A DNA stretch of 64,000 nt from Rosellinia necatrix (taxonomy: Eukaryota; Ascomycota; Sordariomycetes; Xylariales; Xylariaceae): positions 5,208,001-5,272,000 of the forward strand of contig JAGYVD010000003.1 in the NCBI GenBank assembly GCA_021209875.1, read 5' to 3'. Of the stretch, positions 39,229 through 59,448 are shown in pieces; position 1 is the stretch's first letter, and every line of letters begins with the position of its first letter. Both the position numbers and the translations under genes were made by a program. The notes beneath the pieces were generated by a model, which ran no database searches, was not told the DNA's origin, and worked only from the letters and a program-made list of their open reading frames with translations.

Positions 39229-40629
39229 TTAAAAGAGACCAAAGAAGAGCGCGGCAGCGGCGACGAAAACGCCGGTGGCGCTGGCACGGACGATGGCACC
39301 ACCAGCGGTAGCGATGGTGCTGGTGCTAGCAGGGCCAGAGCTTGTCGTGGTGGCCGGGTAGCCGGCGGGAGTGGTGACAGGATAGGTGGGAGCCACCGAG
39401 TAAGAAGTCGAGAGGGTTGGGATGGCAGTAGAGTAGCTTCCAGTAGGGTAGCCCTCGCCGCCGGTAGGGTAAGTCTCACCAGCAGTGGGGTAGCTATCGC
39501 CGCCAGTAGGGTAAGTATTACCGCCGGTAGGATATGGGACGGAAGAGCTCTCGCCGCCAGTGGGGTAGTTGTCACCGCCAGTAGGATAGCTGTCGCCACC
39601 AGTAGGGTAAGGAGCAGAGGAGCTCTCACTGCCAGTAGGGTAGCTGTCACCACCGGTAGGATAAGTGTTGCCGCCGGTAGGATAAGGGGCGGAGGAGCTC
39701 TCGCTGCCAGTAGGATAAGGGACCGAGGAGCTCTCACCACCGGTGGGGTAGCTGCCACCACCAGTAGGATATCCCTGGCCGCCAGTCGGGTAAGAATCAG
39801 ACGAGCTGCTGGTGGGGGTCACCACGGGGTAGCTCCCAGTAGGATATCCAGTGGGGCCGTTGCTGTAGGACGTGGTTGGGTAGTCGTCGTCACCATCCTC
39901 AGGTGGGCACTCGTCCTCGTCATCATCGTCCTCAGGAGGGCACTCATCATCGTCACCGTCTCCGGGATAACCGGTGGAGGTGGGGACCGGGTAGCTGTGA
40001 GTGGGATAACCGGAGGGACCGTTGCTGTAGGTGGCAGTGGCCGTGGGGTAGCTGCCGGTAGGGTAATCATCGTCACCATCCTCCGGGGGGCACTCGTCCT
40101 CATCGTCGTCATCCTCAGGAGGGCACTCATCGTCATCACCGTCTCCCGGGTAGCTAGTCGAGGTTGGGACGGGGTAGCTGTTGGTCGGGTATCCCGACGG
40201 GCCGTTGCTGTAAGTAGCAGTAACGGTGGGAGTGACGGTAGGGTAGCCAGTCGGGTAGCCATCGTCACCGCCTTCGGGAGGGCACTCATCCTCGTCATCA
40301 TCGTCCTCGGGCGGGCACTCGTCATCGTCACCATCGCCGGGGTAACCGGTAGAGGTGGGGACCGGGTAGCTGTAAGTCGGGTATCCGGAGGGATACGCGC
40401 TGTAGCTGCCGGTGGGATAGCTGCTCACGGTGGTCTCGGGAGGGCACTCGTCGTCATCGCCACCGGTGGGATAAGTCCCGGTGGGGTACTCGGTGGGATA
40501 ACCGACGGGGTATTCGGAGGTCTCATCGGGGCACTCATCGTCGTCCGGGATGGACGAGTACTGCTGAGTGGCGCTCACGGCAGCAACAAAGAGGGCGCCG
40601 GCTCCGGCGTACTTAATTAGGCGAACCAT
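39229..40629 (-). CDS. Repetitive GPI-type surface protein with ECPxE and YPTG repeats
   Basis: A single frame of 466 residues. Residues 1-20 are a signal peptide. The last 25 residues (GGAIVRAS, then a hydrophobic tail ending GLF) look like a GPI-attachment signal, so the protein probably sits in the cell wall or membrane. Residues 25-250 contain eight copies of an acidic DECPPE-type motif (first copy DECPDE); every cysteine (33, 62, 105, 116, 169, 180, 230, 241) lies in one. Three near-identical units of about 60 residues combine GYPTxSYPVPTST with two acidic motifs. Residues 255-400 are YPTG repeats spaced by GG[DEN] or SESSSAP. Abundant Ser/Thr suggests O-glycosylation. I do not recognise the family. 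The acidic cysteines could bind metal or form disulfides; this is inference. Confidence 0.88.
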   Translation of the reverse strand: MVRLIKYAGAGALFVAAVSATQQYSSIPDDDECPDETSEYPVGYPTEYPTGTYPTGGDDDECPPETTVSSYPTGSYSAYPSGYPTYSYPVPTSTGYPGDGDDDECPPEDDDDEDECPPEGGDDGYPTGYPTVTPTVTATYSNGPSGYPTNSYPVPTSTSYPGDGDDDECPPEDDDDEDECPPEDGDDDYPTGSYPTATATYSNGPSGYPTHSYPVPTSTGYPGDGDDDECPPEDDDDEDECPPEDGDDDYPTTSYSNGPTGYPTGSYPVVTPTSSSSDSYPTGGQGYPTGGGSYPTGGESSSVPYPTGSESSSAPYPTGGNTYPTGGDSYPTGSESSSAPYPTGGDSYPTGGDNYPTGGESSSVPYPTGGNTYPTGGDSYPTAGETYPTGGEGYPTGSYSTAIPTLSTSYSVAPTYPVTTPAGYPATTTSSGPASTSTIATAGGAIVRASATGVFVAAAALFFGLF

Positions 40630-43962: not shown

Positions 43963-45112
43963 TCAAGAATTGTAGAGAACTTGGGCACGGAGCCGTGATA
44001 TATCCACATGTGTGGCCTTACAGCATCCACCAACGACGATGCTGTGCCAGCAACCGCGGCTTTGTGCTTGGGTGACGATCTTGGCAAGTTGCTGCTCCCA
44101 CGAAGGCTAGATACAAACTCAGTGACCGATATCAGCCTCTATGGTAGCATAACCGCTCGTAAACTAGGCGAAACCGGCTACTTACCTCCTTAGCTATTTC
44201 GTTCAGCCCTGGGGGTCGTTTCCATGTTTTGGTGGCAGTATCATAGACCTCGCCGTTCGTCCCATCTGGGTATAAGAGTAAGCTTGGCCAAGCCCGGAGA
44301 TGACCACTCTCTTCTAGAAGTCTCACGCCAATTTCGTAGGCACTGACCAACTGAGGGAGCTCGGCTATTTTGGTACAGTTGATACCGATTCCCCACGGAG
44401 GATCGTTAGAGTATTCTAAACTTAGTAGGGCACGGATTACTTGGCTCACGCTGCTTCCATCTGGAAGGACGTGGCCAGTGCCCGGAAACACGCAAGATAT
44501 CCAGTATGGAACCCCTCCAAGTGGGCCGGCAGCGGCCGCATCCGGCGACTGTGAAGCAAGGGGCACAGTAAGCTTCCGTATGGCAAGTATTTCATCGACC
44601 CGCGGGACCGTCTCAAAGGCAACGAAATCAACTCGATCATCAAGCCGCGGGATACTGGCAAACAACCTCATACGGTCCGCATGCCAGCGAAACAGCTTCT
44701 CAACCGAGTCGTGTTCATCATCGTACCGGGCGGAGTACTCCTGACTAGGCGTCATGACGGCGCCATACGGCCCCAAGCTCAGGGCGATCTTCGTCGCCGG
44801 CTGCTTGACCTGTTCAACAATGGAAACGGCGGCATCAAGAAATTGAGGGATCTCGGCACGCAACACGCCCTGGGGGAAAGAATCTGTCCGTGTACGCTGA
44901 AATCCCTCGACCGAGACCTGGTATGTGGCGGTGAGCAAGATATCAACAGGAACCTGGGCGAAATCACGCTGGCACGACTCGAGGGCGCCATGGCCCGAGA
45001 GAAGGAGGTGAGAGGACCAAAGAGGCGTGGCCTCTGTAAACTGGACGTTGTACTTGTCTTCCAGGGACGTGCCCAATCCACCGTCGAGGAACAGAATAGG
45101 CGTCGCGGCCAT
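43963..45112 (-). CDS. Homocysteine S-methyltransferase
   Basis: Transfers a methyl group from S-methylmethionine or S-adenosylmethionine to homocysteine, recycling methionine. Two exons (44186-45112 and 43963-44106) give 356 residues. The start FLDGGLGTSLED is the typical beta-barrel opening. The zinc site is complete: Cys246 in GINCTK and the pair Cys337-Cys338 in VVGGCCK. The second motif lies entirely in exon 2, so the intron (donor GTAAGT, acceptor CTAG) must be removed for an active protein; unspliced reading ends within about 17 codons. Length and motif order fit the eukaryotic Mht1/Sam4 group. It stands alone between long intergenic stretches. Confidence 0.93.
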
Positions 45113-46722
45113 GCTGGATAGTCGAAGTTTATCAAGGGGGGCGAAGTTTATAGAGAGGGGCGTTAAGGGCGCTCAGGGGCGTACAGAAAGCAGGCAAGTT
45201 GCAACTCTCTCTCAGCTTCCATTGTGATAGGACAATTCTGTGATGGTTGCCAGTCTAGCGGGTCTCTTTCTCCAGCATCGCACAATCACGCCACCACCAA
45301 CAGGAACCTTGGCGATGACACCAGTGGCACAGTGTCTATACTGTGGCGTAGTACGACAATACAGTGTTATAATCACTGTCTGGTACAATCTAGGAGGACT
45401 TGTCGAGAATTTGGTGCTGAGAGTAGTCTGGTACACGTCACCGCCGTCGCCCGGCTTCTCGGCAATCAGCTCTACGGCGGATGTGGAGGAAACAAATAAA
45501 AAAAGCATCGAGCTTGCACGTCGGCGATTCATGCAAAACAGCCTGGTATTCCAGATGTACATACTTATGTAAGTACATGGTGGCTTACATCTAAAGTTAC
45601 CTAACCCCGCCTAAGGTGTGTCAACATTCCTACCTAGCGGGTCGTCTGGCCGGTGCTAGAGTGCTGGAGTAACCATAACATAGTGGCTGGGTAAGTAACT
45701 AGCAAGCCGTACCCAACCACCTCTCTTGAGGTTAGGTAGCTACTGCCAAACGTAACGTTTGGAACTGTCGACGGCTCGCCGGCACAAGACACAACGAGCA
45801 TCGGGTGTCCGGCACAACCATGAGCAGGTGCGAGCTGAGGGGGTAGGTAGCACCATGGCATATCTCATAGGTAACTACTACCTAATGTCAGCTACTCACT
45901 GTGGTGGCATTTGTAGTATAGAGTATAGCAGCATGCAAACCTCCACCAACTGAATACCCTCGTCGGGCTTTTCTTCTCTTTTTAAACCCAGTCTAGAACG
46001 ATGGAATGGATAATTATTGCTCTACACTACACCTAGTGTACACACCATCTGTCTGCGCCACAGACGTCCTAGCTCTTTAGATTGATCACACCACCTCGAT
46101 TCTTAGTCCAGGTGATAATACAAGACCAAGGACCAAGCGACTATCCAACTTTGCTGACCTCTTCGGGTTTATCCGACCTGGGAAGCCACCTTTCGGATGA
46201 CGACCTTTTCCTGACTTGAAGTCCTTTATCGCCCTTTGGACGTTCGCCGACTTAAGGTTCGCTCCTGAGGTTATACTATCACTCCCGGTACTTACCTACC
46301 TACTTAGTAGGTAGTAGGTATATACCTAGCCCAGATACTTGAGTAGATTGGTAGTGCTTATGTGCTAGTCGCCGGCCGATACCTACTCACCAGCGCATTA
46401 ATTAGTCCCTCCCTCCCCCCCGATTGTCGCATTGGTCGCATTGGTCGCATCGGCCGTATTGCCCACCCGACACGCCCCCAAACAGCCCAACCCGCACGCT
46501 TGTGGATCGGCTTGGCTTTCATCATCCATCATCGACACGGATACTACTCACTTCCCTGCTCCGTCTTGGCCGAGACAATCTGCCCGGATCCGGTCAGTAC
46601 CAAGCCGCCAAAGCGCCGTCGCTGTCGCCGTTGCGTCACCCTGACGGTTCGTCTGCCGCCCCGTCGCACGCGCGCCGTCGTCTCCGGTGTCACGGTTCTC
46701 CGCACATCCACCATCCACCACC
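45113..46722. other. Intergenic, divergent promoters
   Basis: About 1.6 kb between the homocysteine methyltransferase and the C2 gene. Includes TAGGTAGG-type repeats near 46290-46322, a TCGCATTGG repeat at 46427-46454, and C/T-rich DNA before the C2 gene start. No gene is supported. Confidence 0.5.
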
Positions 46723-48606
46723 ATGTCGTCGGATCCCCATGCGATAGGTAACACCGACAACCTGCAGCAGCGTCCCAGCGATACTCCCTTGCCGGACCCT
46801 GCCGGAGTCCCTCAACATGATGGAAATGATGGGATTGATGGAAACCATGAGAGGACCCCCCCGCAGCGTCGTTCGACCATGATGGATAAATTCAAGGACA
46901 GGAAGGAAAAATTGAAAACAAAGGCAAACCCACCTGGTGGCTTCGACTCGACCCCCATTCCCGATGCGCCGCCTGGCTATACCGTCAGGTTCACCTTCCA
47001 TCGCGCGGAAAACCTGCCTGTTGCCGATATCAGCACAGGCGCCTCGGATCCCTTCATCACCGCCACGCTTTCCACGTCGTTGCCCAAGCGACACAAGGAG
47101 GATGCCGATCTCTGTTATCGTACACGCACAATCCGACGATCTCTGGAGCCGCACTGGGAAGAAGAATGGATTGTCGCAAATATCCCCTCGTCCGGCTTCA
47201 GGCTCAAGTGCCGCTTATATGATGAGGATTGGCCTGATCACAACGATCGTCTCGGAAACGTCACTATTTATGAGACCAACATCAGTGAATCTTGGCAAGG
47301 CTCTGCACCGCCGGGAAAGGTTTACGAGGTCAAGAAGCGTATGGGCAGCAAGCGAGCATACGCTCTGAAGGCTGCTACCACTGCCTTCCACAAGGGTGTC
47401 TCGATGACCCCGAGGCTATATATCAGTATTGTGTGCCTCGGGAAGTCAAATCCACCGCACGGCCAAATATATACCATCGGCCCTACCTACTACTTCAAGC
47501 ATTTCTCTCCTATGATTGGGCGTATGATGGGCATCAAGGTTAACAAGGATGAGGCCGACGATGCCGAGGGTCATGATAACCCTCCGAGCACCGGGGCAGA
47601 CGGTAGTAACGCTGAAAAGAGTAACTCGGAGAAGAGGGCACAAAAATATGACTTCCAGGCCAACGAGATCCAATTGGCTGGCCCCGTACCACCAAAACTT
47701 TACCATCGCTATGTTGAGTTTAGGCCCATTATCGGCCTCCTTTTCCAAGGCGCTGGCCTTCGCGGCCGTATCCTAAACAAGGCTTTACATCACCAACACG
47801 AACGGATATATAACTTCGATAAATCGACCGAGTGGGGTACATTCGAACCGTGTTCTGAAGAGGCAAGCCTCCAATTCTTGAAGATGGCGCATTTTGACGA
47901 AGGCGCCCGCCTCTTCACCTATATCATTACACTCGACGGTCTCATGCGCTTCACTGAGACGGGCAAAGAGTTTGGTATCGATCTTCTAAGCAAACATACT
48001 ATGCATAGTGATGCCCATATATATATTGCCTGTTCCGGGGAGTTCTTCATCAAGAAAACAAAAAAGCCCGACAACGCGCATGGTATGGATTCTGGTCAAC
48101 CAGCCCACTCCTCCAGCCAAGCGGCCGAATGCAGGTCGCACAAAGAAGCGTCACCCGCGAATCCAGATGATTATCACCTTATCATCGACAATGATAGCGG
48201 TACCTACAGGCCGGATAAGTCGGTTCTACCAGACTTACGCGCGTACCTGGAGCGTAACTTCCCCGGACTACATATTACGGCGCCTGCATGTGACGACCCA
48301 GAGCATCAGAAGCTAAAGGAAAAACAGCGAAGTCTCAGGAAGAAGGAGGGCCATAACGTTAGAATGGTTCTCAACCGCAGTCCCAGCGCCAGCTCTTTTA
48401 GTTCTAGTGACATCAGTGACCTAGACAATATGGAGCGAGCAGGCGAGGAAGGGCGGAAGAGTAAAAAAGAGCGTGCCTGGGAGCTTTTAGAGGAGCCAAG
48501 GCGGATAAAGGAAGCAATTAATGCCCAATCTAATCACTCAAACGCCGCCCCGTCGACCTCTCAGGCTGGCGACGCGCACGTGGGCAGCAATAGCAACACG
48601 ACTTAA
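46723..48606 (+). CDS. C2-domain protein of unknown function
   Basis: A single exon of 627 residues from the ATG at 46723; the in-frame codon further upstream is GTG. After a disordered, proline-rich start comes a lysine-rich helix (KFKDRKEKLKTK), then a C2 domain at about residues 83-190. Calcium-loop acidic residues are visible in DISTGASDPF and YDEDWPDHNDRLG, with TIRRSLEPHWEEEW between them. C2 domains bind membrane phospholipids, often with calcium. The rest (190-627) has conserved-looking blocks such as FRPIIGLLFQGAGLRGR and LFTYIITLDGLMRFTETGKEFGID, typical of a fungal family I know only as uncharacterised C2 proteins. The C-terminus is charged and Ser-rich. No membrane helix is clear. 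Confidence 0.88.
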   Translation: MSSDPHAIGNTDNLQQRPSDTPLPDPAGVPQHDGNDGIDGNHERTPPQRRSTMMDKFKDRKEKLKTKANPPGGFDSTPIPDAPPGYTVRFTFHRAENLPVADISTGASDPFITATLSTSLPKRHKEDADLCYRTRTIRRSLEPHWEEEWIVANIPSSGFRLKCRLYDEDWPDHNDRLGNVTIYETNISESWQGSAPPGKVYEVKKRMGSKRAYALKAATTAFHKGVSMTPRLYISIVCLGKSNPPHGQIYTIGPTYYFKHFSPMIGRMMGIKVNKDEADDAEGHDNPPSTGADGSNAEKSNSEKRAQKYDFQANEIQLAGPVPPKLYHRYVEFRPIIGLLFQGAGLRGRILNKALHHQHERIYNFDKSTEWGTFEPCSEEASLQFLKMAHFDEGARLFTYIITLDGLMRFTETGKEFGIDLLSKHTMHSDAHIYIACSGEFFIKKTKKPDNAHGMDSGQPAHSSSQAAECRSHKEASPANPDDYHLIIDNDSGTYRPDKSVLPDLRAYLERNFPGLHITAPACDDPEHQKLKEKQRSLRKKEGHNVRMVLNRSPSASSFSSSDISDLDNMERAGEEGRKSKKERAWELLEEPRRIKEAINAQSNHSNAAPSTSQAGDAHVGSNSNTT

Positions 48607-53030: not shown

Positions 53031-54988
53031 TTAGGTAGTTTTAGCCTTCTCCTTATGAGCCTTAGGAAACAACCCCGGGACGATGCCGCTGTCCTGTATC
53101 AGTTTCCATAGACACCACAGATAGCAGAGGGCAAACCCAGCGAAACCAACGCCAACATTGGCAACAACCCATAAATCTGGTTTATCGGCTGGGGGTACGT
53201 AGGCTCGCTCCATAACGTGCCAGGCAGCCATAGCGAGGTAGAAGAGGCCATGGGTTACAAATGTCGCCCATTGCACTATAGAACTTTGACCTTTCTGGAA
53301 GTATGCGCTCATGGAGGTGGGAGGCAGACCTAGCAAATACGCCCAGAGGAGTGTGAATACGGCATAGGGGATGCGCAAATCGACCCGTTGAAGTAGTGGG
53401 AACATTGTCCATGCTCCCAGGATATTTGCAAACCCGACCCACGATCGTACCTCTTTACCCAAGCCTTGCTTACCGGCAAGAAGGAGAGTCATGGGGAGAA
53501 GCGGGAGGAGAACGCTCTTCTCATGGACCTGGTAGCTGAAAAGGAAGAAGCCCCATGCCGTAGCGGCAAAGCCGTAGGGCAGGAGCTCTTTACGAGGCCG
53601 AAGAAAAATGACGCCGCATGCTGGTGAGATTACAGCGAGAGTGGCGAGTAGAGAAGCCCGTTGAAGGAGCTCAGAGGGATATGCGCGTAGTTTGATCACT
53701 ACGTTCGCCGCACACCAGAAATTGGCAACCTTATCCTCGAATAAACCTCGAGCAAAGGGGAATACTCGGTGTATCATCTGAACCATCTGCTCAACTACCG
53801 GGTAGTAGGGAGCGCTCGTGTCGAGATAGGGAGAAAGAAATGTTAAAATGGGGAGTGGTCCATGAAGCCCCTTGAGGTCCGGCTGAGAATCAATGCCCTG
53901 GCTCGCATCGTGGAGGGCGCCAAGGACAAATGGCAGAACCAATACCACGAAAGAGGCCGCGGTTACGGCTGCAATGCCAAAGAACCGGGGTATATTGATC
54001 CGAGGCAAAATGCTGCTGCCCAATAAAAAGGCGAAGACAACTGGGGCGTAATACAGGGCCATCTGCTTGAAACCGAGGGCGGCGACAAAAAAGATGGACG
54101 CCCACATGTATCGCCCAGCTAGCATGCTGGACATACTAGCAACAACAAAGCCGAGCATGACGGTATTGTACTGGAAGTGGACATGGTCGATGAGAATGGT
54201 GCCTGGCTGCATCAGGATGGCAACAAGCGCCAGAGACGCAGGCCATTGGGCAACACCGAAAAGCCGGCTATACCTTCGAGTGAAAACGACAACGGCCGGG
54301 ATGTAGATCAGATATTCGGACACAATGACCGTGGCTCTCATGAATATCTTCAGTGTCGGGTCGTCCGAGCCTCGCGACGTGTAGAGAGCGAACCACGAAG
54401 GGTCGATGAGCGAACCGATGCGACCGAGCAACCAACTGTGGTATGCCGTGAGAGGAGGATAATCGAGCCCCCACCATTGCAGATCGTGGAAATACCATTG
54501 GGAGATGGGGAGTTGGGTAGTGATTTCCATCCAGTGTCGCTGAGCTTCGTAGTCGCCGAACATGGGAGGTTTACCGAAACCTATGCGGACAGAGGGCCAA
54601 AGTCAGCACACGAGACAAGAACAGGGTCGTTAAGATCGAGACAAAGAACAACAGCAGCAAGAGGCACAGGAACGAGAGTCACAGGGCCAAGAGCCATAGG
54701 GCCAAGAGCCATAGGGCCACGGAGATGGAGAGAGAGAGAGAGACAGTAGACGAACCAGAATACCCCCATAAGCCAGCGGCCCAGCGGAAGAGGCCGGCGG
54801 CCATGAGGATCAACGGCAGTATCTCCCATTGCGAGAGGGAAGACCGTGCAGGCCATAGGATCGCCTCTAGGGGGGAAGGTGGGAGACCTGACGAGGGCTT
54901 CGGGCTTGACGTTGGCATCGAAGTGAGCTGTCTTTTTCGGCTTGCGCCGGGGCTTGTGCGGCGACGACATGGCCGAGGCAGAGGCCAT
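53031..54988 (-). CDS. ALG6: ALG6 alpha-1,3-glucosyltransferase, with a one-base frame break
   Basis: Endoplasmic-reticulum enzyme that adds the first glucose to the Man9GlcNAc2 lipid-linked oligosaccharide for N-glycosylation. Exon 2 (53031-54580) carries the luminal-loop signature MFGDYEAQRHWME and LDYPPLTAYHSWLLG, then many hydrophobic segments; the length fits ALG6. Exon 1 (54756-54988) codes a basic cytosolic N-terminus and the first membrane helix, QWEILPLILMAAGLFRWAAG. The frame of the start codon and that of the helix disagree: they switch at a run of six G (54870-54875), where one base too many explains it. The exon sum is then a multiple of three (593 residues). The intron donor is a weak GTTCGT. 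ALG8 is the only close alternative. It is divergent from PalC. Confidence 0.92.
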
Positions 54989-57724: not shown

Positions 57725-59448
57725 TCATATTTTCCCCACGTCGGGAGGAGACGGGCCAAACAAACCGAACATCAGCAAAGCAAAGCCGTTCGAACAGCCT
57801 AGACCAAACCCCCGAACTCCGTTTAACTCGTATCCCCTATCTCCAGCCCCCAATCCATAGCCAGAGCCTCCCCTCCCCCCCTCCTCCTCCTCCTCCAGGC
57901 TCTCAGCAAACCAAGCATCGATATCCTCGCCGCCCTCGAGCTCCGCGATCTCCTCGTCGTCGAGCAAGCGGTTGCGCTCCGCGACGACCTCGCGAACCCA
58001 GCAAAGCTCGGCGGCCCCGCGCCGGGCGACCTCGCGGGCCTCGGCGGCCGCGGCGTGGCGGGCGCGGCGCTCGCCTTCGTCCATGAGCTCCTCGGCGATG
58101 GCCAGCTCCTCGCGGGCGTGGTGGCGGCAGGCGTCGAGCTCGTTGCGGGACCACTTGCGCCAGGCGCGGAAGGCGGCGTCCATCTTGCGGCCGAGGTCGT
58201 CCCGGGCCCTCCGCGCGCGCTCCTCGCGCCCGTCCCGGCCGCCCCAGAACGCCCGCAGCTCCGCGGCGTAGCGCGCCTCGATGCGCCGCCTCGGCCAGCC
58301 GCGCGGCGTACTCGGCCCCGAGCGCCGCCTCGCGCGCCGCGATGCGCGCGTCCGTCCCGGCCCGCCGCGCCGCGCGCTCGCCGCCGTGGGCCTCGAGCAG
58401 CCGGCGCAGGCCTCGTCGGCGCGCGCGCGGAGGGCCCGCGCGGCGTTCCTGGCGGGCCCGCACCGCGGCCTCCTGGGCCCCGTGCAGCGTGCCGAGGGCG
58501 GCGCGGAGCGCGCCGAAGCGCAGCATGACGGCGCGCCGCCTCTCGCCCTCGCGGGCGATGCGGGCCTCGAGCTCGCGGGCGCGCCGCTCCTCGCGCGGCG
58601 CGCTCCCGGCGCAGGAGCTCGGCCTTGCGGGCCGCCTCGCGCTCGAAGGCGGCGACGAGGCGGACGGCCTCGAGGGCCTCGGCGCGCTCGCGGGCCTCGG
58701 CCTCGGCGCGCTCGCGGCGCAGCGCCGCCGCCCGCGCCTTGACCGCCCCGAGCTGCTCCATCGTGCACGCGCACCCCCGCCAGCGCGCGCCGCACACGTA
58801 GCAGAACTCGGCCCCGCACCGGCACGTCATGTGCTGGCACGCCTCCCGGTGCTCGACGTACGCGCCGCAGCCGTGGCACCGCTGCCAGCCCTCGGCCGCC
58901 GCGAGCTCGCTCGTGCGCGCGAGCTCCCAGTCGCGCGGGCAGATGCTACCTCCTCCACTCCCACTCCCTTCCCCTCCGCCACCGCCGCCGCTACTGCTCC
59001 TGCCGCCGGGGTCCTCGTGCCGCGGCCCCCGGCACGCGATGCACGTGTAGTGGCCCTCGACGCAGCGCGCGACGCCCTGCGCGGCGATGACGTACTCGGG
59101 GCGGATGAACAGGCTGCAATCCGGCCGGCTGCAGTACACGCGCTCGGCGGCCGGCAGGTCCCACTCGCGCGCGCGCTCGCGGTACCGGTCCCGCTGCCCG
59201 TCGTCCGCCGCGTGCGCGAGCACCGTCGCGCGCGGGATCGCGCCCAGGCAGCACCGGGGCGGCCACCGCTGCTCGTTCTCGCACGCCGCCGCCACCAGAC
59301 GCCCGAAGCAGGGGCCGCAGTAGTGGTGGCCGCACGACGGCGCCCGCACCGTCGCCGAGGGCGCGAAGTCGTCGAGGCAGGAGACGCACTCGCTGGGAGG
59401 GCGGGGGGGGGGTTATGGTAAGCTTCCTTTTTATATGTGTGTGTGTGT

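What the first reader, a model, noticed from the sequence alone, without database searches (positions are those of the whole stretch)
39229..40629. Surface protein in which every cysteine sits in an acidic ECPxE motif
Eight cysteines, all within (D/E)ECP[PD]E, are spaced in pairs inside three roughly 60-residue units, followed by about 20 YPTG repeats and a GPI-like tail. I know of no family with this design. The even cysteine count and dense Asp/Glu suggest either metal (calcium, copper, zinc) binding at the wall or disulfide-linked polymerisation. The near-identical units indicate recent internal duplication, so allele length probably varies among strains.
Basis: partly seen in the sequence, partly recalled or inferred. 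Interest (0 to 1): 0.8.

Follow-up and report, generated by a model that had tools for sequence, protein, structure and literature searches.

The report
Fungal surface protein with acidic cysteines
A fungus that is probably the white root rot fungus Rosellinia necatrix or a close relative carries a gene for a floppy, strongly acidic surface-type protein in which every cysteine sits in the same short acidic motif; the motif may bind metal ions or cross-link the cell wall, which is untested.

Summary
A 466-aa ORF on the MINUS strand (39229-40629) has 8 cysteines, all in DECP[PD]E: two single sites, then three twin sites in units of 61-64 residues. It has a signal peptide, 20 YPTG (15 after the cysteine part) and a GPI-type tail. 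No Pfam, NCBIfam or PDB-sequence match; AlphaFold2 suggests disorder (mean pLDDT 40, only two sequences).

One named homolog was found, in Xylaria nigripes (43%). Its ends are conserved; its five cysteines all follow Asp/Glu, but only one keeps the exact motif.

"Recent duplication" is not supported: units are alike in protein but diverged at synonymous sites (dN 0.07-0.08; dS 1.1, 1.9, one saturated).

New: the codon pattern for DECPPE occurs nine times in the 49-Mb genome, seven here and two in another secreted protein. In that protein's family the last cysteine is often acid-flanked (75 of 115, other cysteines 28 of 563).

Best reading: a GPI-anchored, disordered, polyanionic thiol head on a YPTG stalk, most likely binding metal or other cations; disulfide cross-linking and selected filler are serious rivals. 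New variant of a known kind.

The parts
39229..40629 (-). Whole coding sequence, 466 codons plus stop, no intron needed
   Evidence: full-length homolog P0002
40567..40629 (-). Signal peptide, about residues 1-21 (cleavage site placed by eye, no predictor run)
   Evidence: R3/K6 then hydrophobic stretch; 20 of 22 residues identical in P0002
40522..40539 (-). Single site 1, DECPDE (Cys33)
40435..40452 (-). Single site 2, DECPPE (Cys62)
40180..40371 (-). Unit 1, residues 87-150, twin site Cys105/Cys116 (40306-40323, 40273-40290)
39997..40179 (-). Unit 2, residues 151-211, twin site Cys169/Cys180 (40114-40131, 40081-40098)
39871..39996 (-). Unit 3 (shorter), residues 212-253, twin site Cys230/Cys241 (39931-39948, 39898-39915)
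39439..39846 (-). YPTG-rich stalk, residues 262-397, 15 of the 20 YPTG
39232..39351 (-). GPI-type tail, residues 427-466, ending in a hydrophobic stretch (judged by eye and hydropathy, no GPI predictor run)
   Evidence: last 16 residues mean hydropathy 2.17; 26 of 40 residues identical in P0002

Best explanation
A GPI-anchored hyphal surface or wall protein. Shown by sequence: targeting-type sequences at both ends, an acidic cysteine-bearing N-terminal part, a Tyr/Pro/Thr/Gly stalk, and selection on the protein sequence of the units. Inferred: GPI anchoring, O-mannosylation of the stalk, and exposure of the head. The head is probably a disordered polyanion (computed charge about -55 at pH 5) in which each thiol is flanked by carboxylates. 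I think it most likely acts as a mixed thiol/carboxylate brush that buffers or captures cations (soft metals at Cys, Ca or other hard ions at Asp/Glu) at the hyphal surface. Architecture about 0.85; cation/metal binding as the main role is what the confidence below refers to.
For: All 8 Cys are in DECP[PD]E. Between units, changes are almost only synonymous. In the X. nigripes homolog 5 of 5 Cys follow D/E and 4 of 5 fit [DE]C..[DE], while CP is kept at 1 of 5: thiol next to carboxylates is what persists. In the family of the other motif-bearing secreted protein the last Cys has at least 4 acidic residues among 10 neighbours in 75 of 115, other Cys in 28 of 563. Head charge -55 at pH 5.
Against: No binding test. 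No CxC or CxxC; nearest Cys are 11 apart, sparse for a metal-thiolate site. The homolog's Cys do not line up position by position with those of the target. The acidic flank of the last Cys is absent in 40 of 115 family members, e.g. the Trichoderma rows. No iron, copper or zinc gene was recognised among the 8 neighbouring ORFs scanned.
Confidence: 0.38

Rival explanations
1. Cross-linker: the cysteines form disulfides between molecules (perhaps with the secreted contig 9 protein that bears the same twin motif), tying wall proteins into a network.
For: Twin sites in two secreted proteins of one genome. The homolog has 5 Cys, and 5 Cys after residue 18 is the commonest count in the contig 9 family, 39 of 116, so an unpaired Cys is plausible.
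Against: Like-charged acidic chains should repel, and acidic neighbours slow thiol reactions (general chemistry, recalled). Cys counts in the contig 9 family vary from 4 to 10.
Confidence: 0.25
2. Selected filler: an acidic, hydrophilic spacer or charge layer in which the Cys has no special chemistry; the composition is selected, the motif is a frozen repeat.
For: Low-complexity composition, disorder, weak conservation between genera (97 of 201 aligned residues in the Cys part, 47 residues gapped).
Against: Cys never occurs outside the motif (8 of 8), and the acid-Cys bias is independent in the homolog (5 of 5 Cys after D/E; 1 of 20,000 shuffles reaches 5).
Confidence: 0.25
3. Heme capture by Cys-Pro motifs at the surface.
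For: Cys-Pro motifs are described as the best explored heme-binding motifs (PMC6356037, passages).
Against: The same paper reports that a negative net charge of the nonapeptide appeared to inhibit heme binding; the surroundings of all 8 Cys are strongly acidic; the homolog has CP at 1 of 5 Cys.
Confidence: 0.03

Closest known systems
Hypothetical protein GGS21DRAFT_73229 of Xylaria nigripes (P0002)
   Same: Signal peptide (20 of 22), stalk (77 of 123 aligned) and tail (26 of 40) are homologous; Cys all follow D/E
   Different: No three-unit ECPPE array; exact motif at 1 of 5 Cys. Its annotated N-terminus has 65 extra residues before the shared MVRLIKYAG start
'Lustrin A-like' / 'extracellular serine-threonine rich' secreted family (contig 9 protein L011:3854-5026:-; Rosellinia necatrix P0005)
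   Same: Twin DECPPE followed by Thr-rich and YPVP/YPTG-like sequence; 48% over 62 residues, E 2e-4 for one comparison of biased composition (done with P0005)
   Different: Different N-terminal four-fifths with its own conserved Cys, no GPI-type tail in the reading used (ends QRRHALY)
Repeat-bearing GPI-anchored fungal wall proteins in general (recalled kind)
   Same: Signal peptide, Ser/Thr/Pro-rich repeats, GPI-type tail; another YPTG-bearing protein of this genome, L048 on contig 2, has the same layout
   Different: L048 has no ECPPE; I found no described wall protein with this motif in the paper searches
Synthetic surface-displayed (Glu-Cys)n phytochelatin analogues (recalled; PMC4791364 seen as listing and start of abstract only)
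   Same: Glu-Cys chemistry at a cell surface
   Different: Engineered, far denser in Cys, no Asp clusters or Pro; an analogy of mechanism, not kinship

Membership tests
GPI-anchored fungal wall protein (broad kind) | N-terminal signal peptide | tested here: met
   By inspection and hydropathy, conserved 20 of 22 in P0002; no SignalP available
GPI-anchored fungal wall protein (broad kind) | C-terminal GPI-attachment signal | tested here: inconclusive
   Hydrophobic end after small residues, conserved 26 of 40, predicted helix 453-463; no GPI predictor or experiment
GPI-anchored fungal wall protein (broad kind) | Found covalently in the wall, O-mannosylated | not testable with these tools
   Needs wall proteomics
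'Lustrin A-like' secreted family | Conserved N-terminal ITSCAPTVTNCP module and full-length similarity | tested here: not met
   Only the ECPPE/YP segment aligns to any length; all 8 Cys of the target are in the acidic motif, so the module's Cys are absent
Metallothionein-like thiol proteins | Clustered CxC or CxxC | tested here: not met
   Nearest Cys are 11 residues apart
Metallothionein-like thiol proteins | Measured metal binding | not testable with these tools
   Needs titration
Kex2-processed repeat precursors | Dibasic sites between repeats | tested here: not met
   Only R3, K6 and R448 in the protein

The most novel reading that the evidence does not exclude
The acid-flanked cysteine ([DE][DE]CPx[DE] and the looser [DE]C..[DE]) is an undescribed extracellular module that otherwise different Sordariomycete surface proteins use as a thiol/carboxylate site for metal capture or metal-gated cross-linking; this fungus has amplified it to eight copies in a GPI-anchored protein and to two in a secreted protein that may work with it.
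Probability: 0.25. Interest if true: 0.6.

Novelty: new variant of a known kind. Interest (0 to 1): 0.4.

Why it matters
If the motif binds metal or forms wall cross-links, it would be a short, recognisable sign of metal or redox chemistry at the hyphal surface of Xylariales and related fungi, and would suggest a function for a widespread secreted family that is named only by a mollusc nacre protein. As it stands it is a well-defined, selected motif without a tested role.

Tried and rejected
Recent duplication: rejected by synonymous divergence.

A genome-wide family of such proteins: not seen in this genome. The looser DNA pattern for [DE][DE]CPx[DE] gives 45 sites, 10 in the two genes and 35 elsewhere, against 39 for the backwards-read control. 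I read the frame around all 35: 27 (L017-L042 and L014) and 8. For the ten loci recounted the frame holds one motif each; for the rest I judged from the stretch printed. None looked like this protein. One (L033) has four acid-flanked Cys close together, one of them exact, but no signal peptide that I can see.

Kex2-processed precursor: rejected. Heme: argued against by charge. Spurious ORF: the + strand has a 499-codon frame over the same stretch; the minus-strand reading is preferred because it has a full-length homolog and selection on its protein sequence.

Tail-only protein search: 678 candidates, none at E <= 10; it did not return the Xylaria homolog either, so it says little. The whole-protein search scored only the 7995 candidates sharing most words; its other two hits, P0003 and P0004 (E 0.0021 and 0.12), look bacterial to me, share only YPTG-type repeats and were not counted as homologs.

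Paper searches: 'ECPPE' anywhere (2 papers, listing only, neither on fungal walls by title); Xylariales wall repeats; lustrin A with fungal wall (listing only); Rosellinia wall GPI (listing only); acidic/metal wall proteins and wall disulfides, listings only. None showed a description of the motif, but no full text from these was read. Both AlphaFold2 jobs were low-confidence, so no fold search was run.

Full report
OBSERVATION. The finding is a minus-strand ORF at 39229-40629 (466 aa). All eight Cys lie in DECPDE or DECPPE: single sites (Cys33, Cys62) and three twin sites 11 residues apart in units starting at residues 87, 151 and 212. Tandem Repeats Finder sees a 183-base period, 2.8 copies, 78% matches. 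There are 20 YPTG, 15 of them after residue 261; 76 Asp/Glu; and only 2 Arg, 1 Lys and 1 His. The head (residues 21-260) has a computed charge of about -55 at pH 5 and the stalk (261-442) about -9. Shuffling residues 22-426 20,000 times never gave 8 strict motifs (mean 0.009). The repeats are related, so these are not eight independent events.

IS IT A GENE. The ATG follows CAAGCAACA after a pyrimidine-rich stretch. The one named homolog returned is a 529-aa Xylaria nigripes hypothetical protein (E 1.8e-54, 43%). By segment, identity is 20/22 in the signal peptide, 97/201 aligned in the Cys part (47 residues gapped), 77/123 in the stalk and 26/40 in the GPI-type tail. A second search with the last 69 residues alone returned nothing at E <= 10, not even the Xylaria protein, so its silence means little. 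Pfam, NCBIfam and PDB-sequence searches were empty. AlphaFold2 with two sequences gave mean pLDDT 40 and one C-terminal helix; with so thin an alignment this suggests disorder without proving it.

ORGANISM. The genome is 49,113,603 bases in 12 contigs. The other motif-bearing protein is 95% identical to a Rosellinia necatrix protein. The published R. necatrix R18 assembly is 49.1 Mb in 11 contigs (PMC10796067, one section and passages read). I infer R. necatrix or a close relative. No R. necatrix entry was returned for the target itself; because only part of the candidates was scored, absence is not shown.

THE UNITS ARE OLD. Over 45 codons the three pairs of units have 22, 14 and 18 synonymous codon changes and 6, 6 and 3 non-synonymous ones; NG86 dN is 0.07-0.08; dS is not estimable (saturated), 1.1 and 1.9. 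Part of the non-synonymous count comes from the poorly aligned end of that stretch. In the 27-codon core, 19, 13 and 10 nucleotide differences cause 2, 2 and 0 amino-acid changes; random changes would cause 13.0, 9.4 and 7.6 on average, and none of 2000 simulations per pair was as low, also with transitions only. The units are kept by selection on the protein, which removes the basis for predicting recent length variation; length variation itself was not tested.

WHERE ELSE THE MOTIF IS. The codon pattern for DECPPE gave 9 exact sites and 0 in the control: 7 in the target and 2 in a 390-aa secreted protein on contig 9 (L011:3854-5026:-). DECPxxE-type codons gave 12, of which 8 are in the target, 2 in the contig 9 protein and 2 elsewhere (control 3). 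The looser [DE][DE]CPx[DE] pattern gave 45 sites, 10 in these two genes; the other 35 match the control count of 39, and I read the frames around all 35: none looked like this protein. The contig 9 protein has 119 hits at E <= 10 among 7991 scored candidates, named by sources 'lustrin A', 'extracellular serine-threonine rich protein' or hypothetical; the named genera in the strong hits are, as I recall their classification, Sordariomycetes. I used 116 of the 119 (P0005-P0120; the three weakest dropped). In 115 the last Cys lies in the last 40% of the chain. It has at least 4 acidic residues among 10 neighbours in 75 of 115, against 28 of 563 for the other Cys; it is preceded by D/E in 57, followed by Pro in 46, and both in 31 of 115. 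Among other Cys 95, 284 and 39 of 562 are so. So 'followed by Pro' is not special to the last Cys; the acidic flank is. Many rows are close relatives (Fusarium, Colletotrichum), so counts are not independent. Examples: DECPPEE in Xylaria arbuscula, DDCPPEE in Biscogniauxia, DECPADE in Colletotrichum, EECDTTT in Fusarium without Pro, and STPCPTD in Trichoderma without acid. The model of this protein from 27 sequences (itself and 26 of the 119 hits) is low-confidence too (mean pLDDT 37). Target and contig 9 family align to any length only over the ECPPE/YP segment (30 of 62 identical, E 2e-4 for one comparison of biased composition, done with P0005). Shared descent of that segment and convergence are both possible.

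WHAT IT PROBABLY DOES. Shown: selected acidic-Cys units and conserved ends. Inferred: GPI anchoring, O-mannosylation, exposure of the head. In the Xylaria homolog all five Cys have acid at -1 (1 of 20,000 shuffles reaches this), four of five fit [DE]C..[DE] (0 of 20,000), yet only one keeps CP; the alignment there is gapped, so the Cys are not position-matched. A thiol next to carboxylates is what persists, which I read as favouring cation or metal coordination (0.38) over cross-linking (0.25) and filler (0.25). Heme is unlikely, since negative net charge was reported to inhibit heme binding to such peptides (PMC6356037, passages). Nothing here tests function.

VERDICT.

Noticed in passing
L011:3854-5026 (contig 9, minus strand): Secreted 390-aa 'lustrin A-like' protein with a twin DECPPE; its best database hit is Rosellinia necatrix P0005, also with two.
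   Followed up: yes
L033:1096-1920 (contig 4): 274-aa ORF, no signal peptide that I can see, with four acid-flanked Cys in about 35 residues (DDECQDD, CKDD, CQDD, DDDCPAD) followed by EAPVEAPV repeats.
   Followed up: partly
L048 frame 685-1629 (contig 2): Another signal-peptide, YP-repeat protein with a GPI-type tail; it starts with an ITSCGPDVPDCP module like that of the lustrin A-like family (ITSCAPTVTNCP), and has no ECPPE.
   Followed up: partly
P0002, residues 1-65: The annotated start of the Xylaria nigripes homolog is probably 65 residues too far upstream: the shared signal peptide begins at residue 66.
   Followed up: partly
window:39121-40620 +: A 499-codon frame runs antisense to nearly the whole gene, presumably a shadow of the repeats.
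   Followed up: no
window:24572-26089, 44132-45112, 46687-48606, 53031-54563, 57823-59349: Neighbours by Pfam: tannase/feruloyl esterase, homocysteine S-methyltransferase, C2-domain protein, ALG6/ALG8 glucosyltransferase, IBR-domain protein (8 ORFs scanned); no obvious functional cluster.
   Followed up: partly
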